From positions 78,862 to 142,861 of the IMG/VR virus record IMGVR_UViG_3300028840_005764: 64,000 nucleotides of DNA. One strand, written 5' to 3'. Positions 3,074 to 50,720 of this stretch are shown here, one piece after another (position 1 is the first letter of the stretch; the number at the start of each line of letters is the position of its first letter). Both the position numbers and the translations under genes were made by a program. Source of the DNA: a virus. The notes under the pieces were generated by a model. It did not search any database. It was not told the DNA's origin and saw nothing but the letters and a program-made list of their open reading frames with translations.

Positions 3074-3629
3074 AATACCAAGACAATCCATTTGTAACAT
3101 GTGCCGCCTGTGGAAAACCAGGAGGCAAGTGGTCGTGTCTGACGGCGGGATCCGTGAATGCCGAGTGGTGGTTGTTGGTGAGGCACCTGGTGCTGAAGAA
3201 GACAAGAAAGGCAAACCTTTCGTCGGTAAGAGCGGTAGCTTACTTCGAAGTGCTATTCAGGAATCTGTCGGGATCGTATTAGGTACAGATGCGGTCGTTC
3301 TCAATACTGTCAGCTGTAGACCACCCAATAATAGAGACCCCAAGGATGATGAGAAAGACGCATGTTTGAATTGGTTGCGTCTCAATATACGCAGGATCAA
3401 ACCGAGGATAGTATTATCTGTTGGCAAACATGCGGCGGCTGTATTCACCCCTGAGAGAGATAGAGGTTTATTTTTCAGTAAGCGATACTTATATGAGATG
3501 TGGCGCGAATATGGATTCATTATGATGCATGTGTGGCACCCTGGTTATGTTCTAAGAAATCGAACAAGTATGAATGAATGGTGTAGGCATTTGAAACTTT
3601 TCGGCGAAAGATTGTTGGAGTTGTCATGA
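3066..3629 (+). CDS. Family 4-type uracil-DNA glycosylase with Fe-S cluster
   Basis: 187 residues. Motif A is VVVGEAPGAEEDKKGKPF with the GEAPG signature of family 4 UDGs. The late motif HPGYVL fits the DNA-intercalating HPxxxL loop. Four cysteines (10, 13, 84, 100) have the C-x2-C ... C-x15-C spacing of the 4Fe-4S cluster in thermophilic family 4 enzymes. These enzymes excise uracil left by dUTP incorporation or cytosine deamination. It lies beside RuvC-like and Rad50-like genes and overlaps both neighbours slightly, indicating one operon. An N-terminal domain or fusion is absent. Confidence 0.88.
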   Translation: MHEIPRQSICNMCRLWKTRRQVVVSDGGIRECRVVVVGEAPGAEEDKKGKPFVGKSGSLLRSAIQESVGIVLGTDAVVLNTVSCRPPNNRDPKDDEKDACLNWLRLNIRRIKPRIVLSVGKHAAAVFTPERDRGLFFSKRYLYEMWREYGFIMMHVWHPGYVLRNRTSMNEWCRHLKLFGERLLELS

Positions 3630-4110: not shown

Positions 4111-4359
4111 ATGAACAACGCAACCAGATATATATTAAGTTGTATTTTGCCAAGAACCCCTTCTTACATAGGTGGTAACTTTGCTATGACTACAAATGGT
4201 GCGTCAGAACCAGGGCCAATGGTTCGTTGCATAGATTGCGTTGAACGTAAGAAATGTAAACGTATATCTAGAAATGTTAATAAATATAAGAAAAGAGAAT
4301 GTAGATATTTTGTAATAGATTTAGTGAAACAATCTAATTATTATGCAAATAAAAAATGA
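4111..4359 (+). CDS. Hypothetical cysteine-containing small protein
   Basis: 82 residues with a basic cysteine cluster CIDCVERKKCKR that could chelate a metal with the later C in RECRYF. It starts 2 bp after the previous stop. The N-terminal third is weakly hydrophobic. Function unknown. Confidence 0.55.
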   Translation: MNNATRYILSCILPRTPSYIGGNFAMTTNGASEPGPMVRCIDCVERKKCKRISRNVNKYKKRECRYFVIDLVKQSNYYANKK

Positions 4360-9540: not shown

Positions 9541-9673
9541 TCGGGAGAGGTGGAATCGAACCACCGACCTGGGAGCTCCATATGCTGAAGTGGCGTCTTA
9601 GTTCCATGTGTGAGGCACGAGCGTTAGTTTAGACGTCACTTACATCCCCGCTCTACCACTGAGCTATCTCCCG
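9541..9673 (-). tRNA. tRNA-Pro(TGG) candidate interrupted by a 61 nt insertion
   Basis: Acceptor CGGGAGA/TCTCCCG (C1-G72, A73 as in proline), D-stem GCTC/GAGC, T-arm GGTGG/CCACC are intact, but the anticodon arm is split. Removing 9581-9641 gives GGGAT, loop GTTGGAG, CTCCC, that is anticodon TGG with one T-C mismatch at 31-39. The insertion folds with its ends as an 11 bp stem (AAGTGACGTCT/AGACGCCACTT) and ends in CAGCATA, as does the insertion in the next tRNA. It is far too short for a group I intron. The junction is inferred. Confidence 0.7.
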
Positions 9674-9678
9674 AAAGG

Positions 9679-9819
9679 TGGACGGGCTAGGATTCGAACC
9701 TAGAAAAACTATGCTGAAACAACTTCTGAGTTCTCAATCGTATTGAGTGATGAAAGAAATTGTTGTTGCTTGCGTTGCTAGCTCTATAGGCTAGTGCCTT
9801 ACCATTTGGCTACCCGTCC
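9679..9819 (-). tRNA. tRNA-like gene (anticodon ATA) with a 58-68 nt insertion in the variable region
   Basis: Acceptor GGACGGG/CCCGTCC, D-stem GCC/GGC, anticodon stem CTAGC/GCTAG, loop CTATAGA (anticodon ATA), T-arm CTAGG/CCTAG. Between the anticodon stem and T-arm lies extra sequence; 9710-9767 folds as AACAAC..GTTGTT plus CTCAAT..ATTGAG and ends CAGCATA like the insertion in tRNA-Pro. Removing 58 nt leaves a class II-like arm AACG-CAAG-CGTT; removing 68 nt leaves a class I tRNA. An ATA anticodon is abnormal in bacteria, so amino acid identity is unresolved. Confidence 0.6.
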
Positions 9820-49228: not shown

Positions 49229-49302
49229 AGCGGGATGGCGCAGTTGGATAGCGCGCCGGACTCATGATCCGGTGGTCGGGGGTTCGAGTCCCCCTCCCGC
49301 AA
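49229..49302 (+). tRNA. tRNA-Met(CAT) or Ile2-like
   Basis: Anticodon loop CTCATGA gives CAT; stem CCGGA/TCCGG; D-stem GCGC/GCGC; acceptor GCGGGA pairs with TCCCGC but position 1-72 is A-A. CAT could be elongator methionine or lysidine-modified isoleucine. The stem lacks the GGG/CCC of initiators. First base follows the preceding stop. Confidence 0.85.
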
Positions 49303-49305
49303 TAT

Positions 49306-49379
49306 GGACCGGTAGCTCAGTAAGGTAGAGCAGCTGACTTTTAATCAGCATGTCGTGGGTTCAACTCCCGCCCGGTTCA
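49306..49379 (+). tRNA. tRNA-Lys(TTT)
   Basis: Acceptor GGACCGG/CCGGTTC, anticodon loop CTTTTAA gives TTT, variable ATGTC, discriminator A. Confidence 0.93.
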
Positions 49380-49415: not shown

Positions 49416-49445
49416 TAGGTAGCAGTGATAAAACGGAGGCAGAAG

Positions 49446-50198
49446 ATGGCAAAGATGCATGAATTGTTGGCAGTCGAATCGGATCTCGCCGGCAACTACA
49501 AGCGGGTGAGAGACGAGGGGATCAACACCCTCAGCAAGAAACCAGATCACTTCTTCGGGCATCACAAATCGCTGTTGATGTTCGATGAGTCGCGCAAGAA
49601 CGAAGAAGCGAGTGCCGAGCAGCACAAAGAGATGACTACCACGGTCCACGATAAGATCGATTGGGTGAATGACTCGGCCATCAACTACTTCGACGCGCTT
49701 CTGCAGAAGGAATCCACGAATCAGACGGCGAAGGCCGATCTCGTGGTGGATGGCAAGACGATGGCGAAGGACGTGCCCGCGACGTTTCTTCTGGGTATGG
49801 AGACGAAGCTTCGTGAAGTTCGCCAGCTGTATGAAGCCGCGCCTACGTTGCCGCCGGGTGTGAAGTGGGAGCATGCGGAGCAGGATGGCCGCGGGGTGTG
49901 GCGCACAGCCAATCCCGAGGTCACGGAGAAGACGGAGAAAACTGTCGAGCACAAGATCATTGTGCCGGCCACAGACAAGCACCCAGCACAAGTTGAGAAG
50001 TGGACTGCGAACAAGGTCATCGGCCAATTCACTACGACCAAGGTCAGTGGTGCGTGGACCGTGGCGCAGAAGGCGGATTGCCTGGGGAGGATTGACAAAC
50101 TCTTGCGTGCAGTGAAGAAGGCTCGGCAGCGCGCGAACACCGTCGAGGTGGTTGAGCGTACCGTGGCCAAGGAACTCTTCGACTACATCTCGGGGTAA
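49446..50198 (+). CDS. Conserved-looking phage protein
   Basis: 250 residues from ATG 49446 with CGGAGGC upstream. Helical, charged (KMHELLAVESDLAGNYKR, EKTEKTVEHKIIVPA) and GC-rich. It resembles a family of phage and actinobacterial proteins of unknown function that begin with a LHxLLAVE-type helix. No enzymatic motif. Followed by the permuted tRNA region. Confidence 0.65.
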   Translation: MAKMHELLAVESDLAGNYKRVRDEGINTLSKKPDHFFGHHKSLLMFDESRKNEEASAEQHKEMTTTVHDKIDWVNDSAINYFDALLQKESTNQTAKADLVVDGKTMAKDVPATFLLGMETKLREVRQLYEAAPTLPPGVKWEHAEQDGRGVWRTANPEVTEKTEKTVEHKIIVPATDKHPAQVEKWTANKVIGQFTTTKVSGAWTVAQKADCLGRIDKLLRAVKKARQRANTVEVVERTVAKELFDYISG

Positions 50199-50227
50199 CC
50201 CGGGTGTAATACAAGGGCAGCTTTGTT

Positions 50228-50292
50228 GTGAGCGTCAGTCTCAGCTTCCAAGACAAGAATGCGGCCGTGGTTGTTGCCACGGTTAGACGCTT
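50228..50292 (+). ncRNA. Candidate structured RNA before the permuted tRNA
   Basis: AGCGTC (about 50228) pairs with GACGCT (about 50287), enclosing GTCT..AGAC and a perfect CCGTGG-TTGTTG-CCACGG hairpin, a three-way-junction-like shape. No frame with a ribosome site covers it. Possibly part of the transcript that carries the tRNA halves. Confidence 0.4.
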
Positions 50293-50325
50293 GTCGACAT
50301 CAGCGTATTGCCCACCAGCACGGCT

Positions 50326-50507
50326 GGTTCAGGACTCGAGAGATCGGTGCCGAGGTCAAAATTCCACCCTGGTCGTTGGTTCGATCCCAACCCTTGCCTC
50401 CAATGTCACGCGCGAGCGCCGAGGTGTTCGTGCTGTGGGTGCCATTCGTGGTGCCCACTTTTGGCAAGGTAACTCAGTGGCAGAGTCAGGGCCCAACAGC
50501 ATGAACC
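50326..50507 (+). tRNA. Candidate circularly permuted tRNA (3' half before 5' half)
   Basis: The 3' half (50366-50402) reads ACCCT, GGTC, T-arm GTTGG-TTCGATC-CCAAC, acceptor CCTTGCC, T73 and encoded CCA. Sixty bases later the 5' half begins at 50463: GGCAAGG (perfect complement of CCTTGCC), TA, D-stem ACTC/GAGT, then AGGG, which pairs with CCCT. The flanks GGTTCA (50326-50331) and TGAACC (50502-50507) also pair, so the precursor can fold. U73 with CCA fits glycine; the loop in the 5' half contains CCAACA, like the neighbouring tRNA (AAC). Identity unresolved. Confidence 0.6.
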
Positions 50508-50554
50508 TAGGTACTCGAATCAGAACGAGGCAGGAGCGAAGCCAAACTAGAGTA

Positions 50555-50631
50555 AACGTGTTGGCCCAATATGGTAGGGCAGTGGCTCAACAAGCTACGG
50601 GTTCCGGGTTCGAGTCCCGGATACGTTGCCA
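50555..50631 (+). tRNA. tRNA-Val-like(AAC) with C33
   Basis: Acceptor AACGTGT/ATACGTT, D-stem GCCC/GGGC, anticodon stem GTGGC/GCTAC, loop TCAACAA gives AAC, variable GGGTT, T-arm CCGGG/CCCGG, discriminator G, CCA encoded. C at position 33 and A34 are both unusual. Complete cloverleaf. Confidence 0.75.
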
Positions 50632-50720
50632 AAAACTCTATTCACTTAGGTCGGACGTCGGAGGCGCGTGACTGGAGATGATCGCGTTTTCTGGCGTCCG
50701 GCCACCTTTTGGATGCCACA

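What the first reader, a model, noticed from the sequence alone, without database searches (positions are those of the whole stretch)
50326..50507. A tRNA gene that looks circularly permuted
The 3' half with T-arm, acceptor and encoded CCA (ending 50402) lies 60 bp upstream of the 5' half (starting 50463). The two acceptor strands are perfect complements (GGCAAGG/CCTTGCC), AGGG/CCCT can form the anticodon stem, and flanking GGTTCA/TGAACC also pair. Permuted tRNAs are known from some algae and archaea; I know of no phage example. A rearranged, dead gene is the alternative.
Basis: partly seen in the sequence, partly recalled or inferred. Interest (0 to 1): 0.88.

Follow-up and report, generated by a model that had tools for sequence, protein, structure and literature searches.

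The report
Backwards tRNA mimic in phage RNA
The scrambled tRNA is real, and it is the tRNA-shaped head of a large, previously unlabelled RNA that many unrelated phages (and some bacteria) carry right after one conserved gene of unknown function, so it is neither a dead gene nor an ordinary working tRNA.

Summary
The T-arm, acceptor 3' strand and CCA (50375-50402) lie 60 nt upstream of the acceptor 5' strand and D-arm (50463-50486). All four tRNA helices form, and unconstrained folding finds them (z = -3.1).

It is not unique and not dead. The same permuted module follows the gene PF25283/DUF7873 in 73 of 74 viral loci, in isolated phages of Rhizobium, Vibrio, Klebsiella, Gordonia and Rhodococcus, and in Bacteroidota genomes. 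Compensatory changes are massive: 435 double-changed cells against 137 in shuffles.

The 'decoding tRNA' reading fails. The anticodon stem runs through a conserved internal loop into a second helix, and U33 is present in only 46% of loci.

The module is the head of a roughly 490-nt RNA. This has a leader with a strong 6-nt period (z = 14.7), a hairpin site that often holds a tRNA or a bare anticodon arm, and a terminal hairpin. The closest known relative is the bacterial Y RNA YrlA, a permuted tRNA mimic; size, gene neighbour, Rfam score and basal stem all differ.

My best model is a tRNA-mimic RNP with DUF7873, whose head is matured by host RNase P and CCA enzymes. The conserved RNA is shown by comparison; processing and protein partner are inferred.

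The parts
49425..50198 (+). DUF7873 (PF25283) protein gene, unknown function, constant upstream neighbour; homologues start at the Met of MAKLHE (about 49446)
   Evidence: Pfam E 5.8e-73; 123 viral relatives, 88 phage records, 23 bacterial loci; AF2 pLDDT 89
50211..50320 (+). leader domain: closing helix GGGCAG 50215-50220 / TTGCCC 50308-50313, hexamer-phased stretch 50227-50249, internal hairpin 50265-50282
   Evidence: MFE z -2.67; family-wide 6-nt period z 14.7; anchored closing helix p 8e-8 against crossed loci
50346..50356 (+). helix H2, 3' strand GGTGCCGAGGT
   Evidence: pairs with 50505-50515 and in the MFE fold
50367..50371 (+). stem at the anticodon-stem position, 3' strand CCCTG
   Evidence: 4 or more contiguous bp in 60/71 loci against 21% in crossed controls
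50375..50402 (+). tRNA-like 3' half: T-arm 50375-50391, acceptor 3' strand 50392-50398, U73, CCA 50400-50402
   Evidence: T-stem 99.7% paired in 65 sequences
50403..50462 (+). intervening sequence between CCA and the 5' acceptor strand, two hairpins; 3-79 nt in relatives, ending URU
   Evidence: -3 T 49/69, -2 purine 65/69, -1 T 43/69
50463..50486 (+). tRNA-like 5' half: acceptor 5' strand 50463-50469, D-arm 50472-50486
50487..50491 (+). stem at the anticodon-stem position, 5' strand CAGGG, followed by internal loop CCCAACAGCATGA
50505..50515 (+). helix H2, 5' strand ACCTAGGTACT, then CGAATCAGAA (family: CAACGAAAGAA)
50555..50631 (+). tRNA-like insert at the family's plug-in site ('tRNA-Val', anticodon AAC, C33)
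   Evidence: ARAGORN, Rfam 51.5 bits; same site holds a tRNA, anticodon arm or hairpin in relatives
50649..50703 (+). terminal hairpin GGTCGGACGTC...GGCGTCCGGCC (relatives: 12-13 bp, loop AGGNNA)
   Evidence: MFE z -5.17; family

Best explanation
The region encodes a structured non-coding RNA of about 490 nt (roughly 50211-50703), directly downstream of and probably co-transcribed with DUF7873. SHOWN by comparative sequence: a circularly permuted tRNA-like head (T-arm, acceptor, CCA, spacer, acceptor, D-arm), mounted through its 'anticodon' stem, a conserved internal loop and helix H2 on a larger RNA. That RNA has a leader with a 6-nt repeat phase, a hairpin site often occupied by a tRNA or an anticodon arm, and a terminal hairpin. 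INFERRED: (1) host tRNA enzymes treat the head as tRNA: RNase P cuts before the 5' acceptor strand (URU at -3 to -1) and the 3' side is trimmed or given CCA, leaving a nicked two-strand head. (2) DUF7873, possibly as a multimer, binds the RNA, the hexamer-phased leader being the natural site. (3) The RNP works like a Y RNA: the tRNA mimic recruits or occupies a tRNA-binding host factor (nuclease, modification enzyme, synthetase or ribosome factor) during infection. It does not decode codons.
For: Position: beside DUF7873 in 73/74 viral loci at >50 bits, in named phages and in bacterial loci. Negative controls: four tRNA-rich phages without DUF7873 reach at most 40.6 bits. Covariation: 90.5% of cells paired and 435 double changes, shuffles 59.1% and 137. 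H2 and the stem extend it. CCA at 74-76 in 60/69 loci, also missing from Bacteroidota copies (L118, L126, L130). URU before the 5' strand. 6-nt period z 14.7, lag 12 z 7.1. No conserved U33. A73 is the rarest discriminator, 9/69. YrlA, an established permuted tRNA mimic (PMC8394870, PMC11472068), is the only Rfam family that matches the whole head in relatives, at sub-threshold scores of 29-42 bits.
Against: There is no expression, processing or binding data. Most rows of the alignment were chosen by a scan that demanded acceptor pairing, so the 100% pairing of that helix is partly built in (the stem, H2, and loci found only by the model, such as L060, L061, L063, L118, L133, were not). The leader's closing helix is only moderately supported, and the leader period is weaker in the window's own copy. 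The window's terminal loop lacks the AGGNNA consensus. DUF7873 has no detectable RNA-binding homologue.
Confidence: 0.6

Rival explanations
1. A true permuted tRNA gene as in red algae: the precursor is circularised or ligated and opened at the acceptor, giving a normal decoding tRNA.
For: Gene order, encoded CCA, complete acceptor, T and D arms, URU before the 5' end.
Against: No anticodon loop: the stem continues into helix H2 across an internal loop of about 12/8 nt, which is not a bulge-helix-bulge; U33 in 46% only; no acceptor or discriminator identity; and the leader and terminal domains would be unexplained.
Confidence: 0.06
2. A diverged Y RNA (YrlA family): the head tethers PNPase or another effector and the body binds a Ro60/TROVE protein.
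For: Same permuted fold; Rfam YrlA hits at 29-42 bits in relatives; TROVE genes in 5/20 of these phage records and 3/8 bacterial genomes.
Against: No TROVE in the window's record or most relatives; below the 69-bit gathering score and no hit at all in the window's copy; in L030 and Rhizobium phage TM21B a separate YrlA-like RNA lies near TROVE while this RNA stays with DUF7873; about 490 nt against 90-150.
Confidence: 0.22
3. A two-piece (permuted) tmRNA-like ribosome-rescue RNA.
For: Same topology; beta_tmRNA hits the T-arm-spacer-acceptor stretch in L099 and L100.
Against: Canonical D-stem, no G3-U70 (window pair 3-70 is C-G), no tmRNA model hit in the window; Gordonia phage Phendrix has a separate ordinary tmRNA.
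Confidence: 0.04
4. Degenerate, rearranged tRNA debris in a tRNA island.
For: It lies among many tRNAs; the nearby inner tRNA-Val is atypical (A34, C33).
Against: Compensatory change at 20 of 21 pairs over 65 sequences, fixed position after DUF7873 across unrelated phages.
Confidence: 0.01

Closest known systems
YrlA bacterial Y RNA (Rfam RF02553; PDB 6CU1)
   Same: Circularly permuted tRNA mimic: T-arm, acceptor, loop, acceptor, D-arm, mounted on a stem through the anticodon-stem position
   Different: CCA encoded in most loci; about 490 nt instead of 90-150; partner gene DUF7873 instead of Ro60; the hexamer-phased leader, the plug-in tRNA or anticodon arm and the terminal hairpin are not part of the YrlA model; sub-threshold Rfam scores
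Permuted tRNA genes of algae and archaea
   Same: 3' half upstream of 5' half, spacer between the acceptor ends
   Different: No anticodon loop, no bulge-helix-bulge, extended helix instead; bacterial and phage hosts
Two-piece permuted tmRNA (RF01850, RF04321)
   Same: tRNA-like domain split at the acceptor with an intervening segment
   Different: Canonical D-arm, no G3-U70, no tmRNA model match across the RNA
GOLLD and ROOL RNAs
   Same: Large structured RNAs of phages near tRNA islands; GOLLD linkers sometimes contain tRNAs (PMC12286853)
   Different: No Rfam match; smaller; permuted tRNA head; linked to a protein gene

Membership tests
YrlA (RF02553) | Permuted tRNA-like module with T-loop, D-loop and acceptor | tested here: met
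YrlA (RF02553) | Scores above the Rfam gathering threshold (69 bits) | tested here: not met
   no hit on the window's copy at E<=1; best DUF7873-linked relative 42.4 bits
YrlA (RF02553) | Encoded near a Ro60/TROVE gene | tested here: not met
   no TROVE in the 142,861-nt record, 5/20 records tested have one; the record may be a fragment
YrlA (RF02553) | Length 90-150 nt with 5' and 3' ends forming one basal Ro-binding stem | tested here: not met
   conserved domains span about 50211-50703
YrlA (RF02553) | Binds Ro60 and tethers PNPase | not testable with these tools
   needs biochemistry
Permuted tRNA gene | 3' half precedes 5' half, acceptor strands pair | tested here: met
Permuted tRNA gene | Joined halves form a 7-nt anticodon loop with U33 | tested here: not met
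   helix H2 continues the stem; U at 33 in 46% of 69 loci
Permuted tRNA gene | Bulge-helix-bulge at the join for the splicing endonuclease | tested here: not met
   internal loop of about 12/8 nt then a long helix
Permuted tRNA gene | Mature tRNA accumulates | not testable with these tools
   needs small-RNA sequencing
Two-piece tmRNA | Matches a tmRNA covariance model across the RNA | tested here: not met
   (window); relatives L099 and L100 match only a 65-nt acceptor stretch
Two-piece tmRNA | G3-U70 alanine identity | tested here: not met
   window pair 3-70 is C-G; columns 32/101 of A4 mostly G-C and C-G
Two-piece tmRNA | Tag reading frame | not tested
   no systematic search for tag peptides was made
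GOLLD / ROOL | Matches the Rfam GOLLD or ROOL models | tested here: not met
   no such hit in the window region or relatives

The most novel reading that the evidence does not exclude
A new class of phage ribonucleoprotein: DUF7873 subunits assemble on the 6-nt-phased leader and display a host-matured tRNA mimic plus an exchangeable anticodon arm, acting as bait or antagonist for tRNA-targeting host factors such as defence anticodon nucleases. The closely related copies L085/L087 and L065/L067 differ in the displayed anticodon (TGA/TAA and TAA/TGT).
Probability: 0.13. Interest if true: 0.92.

Novelty: new variant of a known kind. Interest (0 to 1): 0.74.

Why it matters
It reveals a widespread, well-conserved structured RNA in tRNA-rich and jumbo phages that Rfam, ARAGORN and genome annotation all miss, tied to one conserved protein of unknown function. 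It shows that permuted tRNA mimicry, known from Y RNAs, is used far more broadly and in a composite RNA with a period-6 leader. It also gives immediately testable questions: what the tRNA head recruits, whether RNase P processes it, and what DUF7873 does. Isolated phages (Rhizobium, Vibrio, Klebsiella, Gordonia) make the experiments possible.

Tried and rejected
(1) Natural permuted group I intron-exon: my first idea. The shared sequences did not give the P3-P7 core order, Rfam found no intron, and H2 explains the pairing; the only formal intron test run was Rfam. (2) Permuted tmRNA: see rivals. (3) DUF7873 as a Cas7/RAMP-like RNA-coating protein (6-nt footprint): Foldseek's best PDB hits include many Cas7 and Csm chains but none is significant (E 0.03-0.3, TM about 0.13), and hhalign against five RAMP proteins gave probability <1%. 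Kept only as a faint lead. (4) Inner tRNAs biased to particular anticodons: position 36 not different from other tRNAs of the loci (p 0.18). (5) The unanchored search for the leader closing helix was hardly better than crossed controls (37% as good); anchored it is better. (6) The YrlA hit at 49257-49366 is the junction of two ordinary tandem tRNAs, so YrlA and R1 hits in tRNA arrays need the score cut used here.

Full report
CHECK. The window is part (78862-142861) of a 142,861-nt uncultured virus record. At 50375-50402 stand a T-arm, the acceptor 3' strand CCTTGCC, U73 and CCA. At 50463-50486 stand GGCAAGG and a D-arm. ARAGORN lists 27 tRNAs but not this one, and Rfam finds nothing here even at E<=1. 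Unconstrained folding of 50340-50515 gives T-arm, acceptor stem, D-arm, a five-pair stem at the anticodon-stem position and a further outer helix (MFE -71, z -3.14).

RELATIVES. The gene just upstream (49425-50198) is PF25283, DUF7873, E 5.8e-73. Its homologues were fetched from viral contigs, named phages and bacterial genomes. Two contigs are identical to the window here; the other proteins aligned are 35-56% identical. In nearly all of them a permuted half-pair lies within a few hundred bases downstream of the stop codon, with none in 3.4 Mb of shuffles. Acceptor pairs are quite different from locus to locus yet complementary (for example GGCCAAG/CTTGGCC, TGGCGGG/CCCGCCA, GGGCTCG/CGAGCCC). 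On a 65-sequence alignment, 90.5% of cells pair (shuffles 59.1%) and 435 cells carry double changes (shuffles 137); sliding the structure by one column drops pairing to 44-47%. Caveat: the scan itself required acceptor pairing. The stem and H2 were not required, and loci found only by the covariance model R1 (L060, L061, L063, L118, L133 and others) share the same arms.

SPECIFICITY. R1 scores more than 50 bits beside DUF7873 in 73 of 74 viral loci (the exception L029 has 22 bits at the right place). In 17 of 18 records searched whole, the top hit (49-74 bits) is this element; the exception, the Pseudanabaena phage, reaches 34.7 bits, also beside its DUF7873. Lower hits in the window are mostly junctions of adjacent tRNAs. 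Four tRNA-rich phages that lack DUF7873 reach at most 40.6 bits.

ANATOMY. The stem at the anticodon-stem position pairs four or more contiguous bases in 60 of 71 loci, against 21% when halves of different loci are crossed. It leads through a loop of the type NNWTTAGNNTGA (5') / YCAAAANN (3') into helix H2. The tRNA head therefore has no anticodon loop, and position 33 is U in only 46%. CCA stands at 74-76 in 60 of 69 loci; several Bacteroidota copies lack it. That is what one expects where CCA is added by enzyme rather than encoded (my knowledge of those genomes, not tested here). The spacer is 3-79 nt and ends URU (-3 T 49/69, -2 purine 65/69, -1 T 43/69), compatible with RNase P cleavage. 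The discriminator is rarely A (9/69) and the 1-72 pair varies, so a single amino-acid identity is not conserved.

Upstream of the head, the leader has a clear 6-nt period: autocorrelation at lag 6 has z 14.7 and at lag 12 z 7.1, other lags at most 1.6. The units are of the type AGCTTT, AAACTT, AGACTC. In the window this is the stretch GAGCGTCAGTCTCAGCTTC. A helix closing the leader (window GGGCAG/TTGCCC) is supported when anchored (p 8e-8). Downstream of H2 there is a plug-in site, at about 72-92 nt from the 5' acceptor end. It holds a tRNA (23 loci, 20 of them without CCA), a bare anticodon arm, another permuted tRNA (L066, L084) or a plain hairpin. Canonical anticodon-type arms occur in 40 of 71 loci against 2.1 expected (a few of the 40 are T-arms of inner tRNAs). 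Then comes a 12-13-bp hairpin with loop AGGNNA. The window has the tRNA-Val-like gene 50555-50631 (A34, C33) at that site, and a strong terminal hairpin 50649-50703 (z -5.17) with a larger loop.

WHAT IT WORKS LIKE. Among known RNAs, only bacterial Y RNA (YrlA) has this design: a circularly permuted tRNA mimic mounted on a stem (PMC8394870; PMC11472068 describes the circular permutation of PDB 6CU1). Rfam's YrlA model aligns to the heads of several relatives at 29-42 bits, below its 69-bit threshold. It also matches tandem tRNA junctions, so this shows likeness, not descent. TROVE (Ro60) genes occur in 5 of 20 phage records and 3 of 8 bacterial genomes tested, not in the window's record. Where both exist (L030, Rhizobium phage TM21B) a separate YrlA-like RNA lies near TROVE. 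I therefore do not file this RNA as YrlA, but say that its head works like one. Jumbo-phage TROVE proteins, with a tRNA-like partner in cellular organisms, have been noted (PMC7824862), and Y RNAs have been predicted in mycobacteriophages (PMC12282133, citing Chen 2014, which is not held here). No held paper mentions DUF7873, and the searches found none describing a permuted tRNA in a phage.

MECHANISM. Shown: a conserved RNA with a permuted tRNA-like head and the domains above, coupled to DUF7873. Inferred: maturation of the head by tRNA enzymes, leaving two strands held by the acceptor stem; binding of DUF7873, with the hexamer-phased leader as the likely site; and recruitment or occupation of a tRNA-binding host factor. 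The AF2 model of DUF7873 is confident (pLDDT 89) but has no significant structural match. A Cas7-like reading was tested by profile comparison and not supported.

VERDICT. Observation confirmed; interpretation partly supported; a new, composite variant of tRNA-mimic RNA, widespread in phages, function open. Library limits (no bioRxiv, few subscription papers) mean that prior description elsewhere cannot be excluded.

Noticed in passing
window 9679-9819 (-) and about 9545-9677 (-): Two tRNA-like genes with insertions of roughly 60-80 nt (one between anticodon arm and T-arm, one inside the anticodon arm), missed by ARAGORN; Rfam tRNA gives 55.2 bits for the first.
   Followed up: partly
L101 about 3380-3440, L102, L078 3786-3864, L084 4009-4094, L066, L100 3364-3439, L103 3859-4109: Second permuted tRNA-like modules in the same transcript region, e.g. 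CCCCTGC-ACCA-CAT-GCGGGGG in Gordonia phage Phendrix; apparently plugged into other hairpin positions.
   Followed up: partly
L139 227-303 and L030 438-574: YrlA-like permuted RNAs near TROVE/Ro60 genes in Rhizobium phage RHph_TM21B (with encoded CCA) and in a viral contig, separate from the DUF7873-linked RNA.
   Followed up: partly
L101 581-1109 (Gordonia phage Phendrix): Ordinary tmRNA (RF00023, 89 bits) absent from the deposited annotation.
   Followed up: no
L043 about 4152-4226: Inner tRNA at the plug-in site has anticodon UUA, which would read the UAA stop codon.
   Followed up: no
L085/L087 and L065/L067: Closely related copies differ in the anticodon of the inner arm (TGA/TAA; TAA/TGT), suggesting fast change of the displayed anticodon.
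   Followed up: partly
Bacteroidota contigs L117, L123, L126, L127 and others: DUF7873 in bacterial genome assemblies, several on contigs over 200 kb beside housekeeping genes such as EPSP synthase (L123), so it is not only a phage gene; also present in Deinobacterium chartae, the one control genome that has TROVE.
   Followed up: partly
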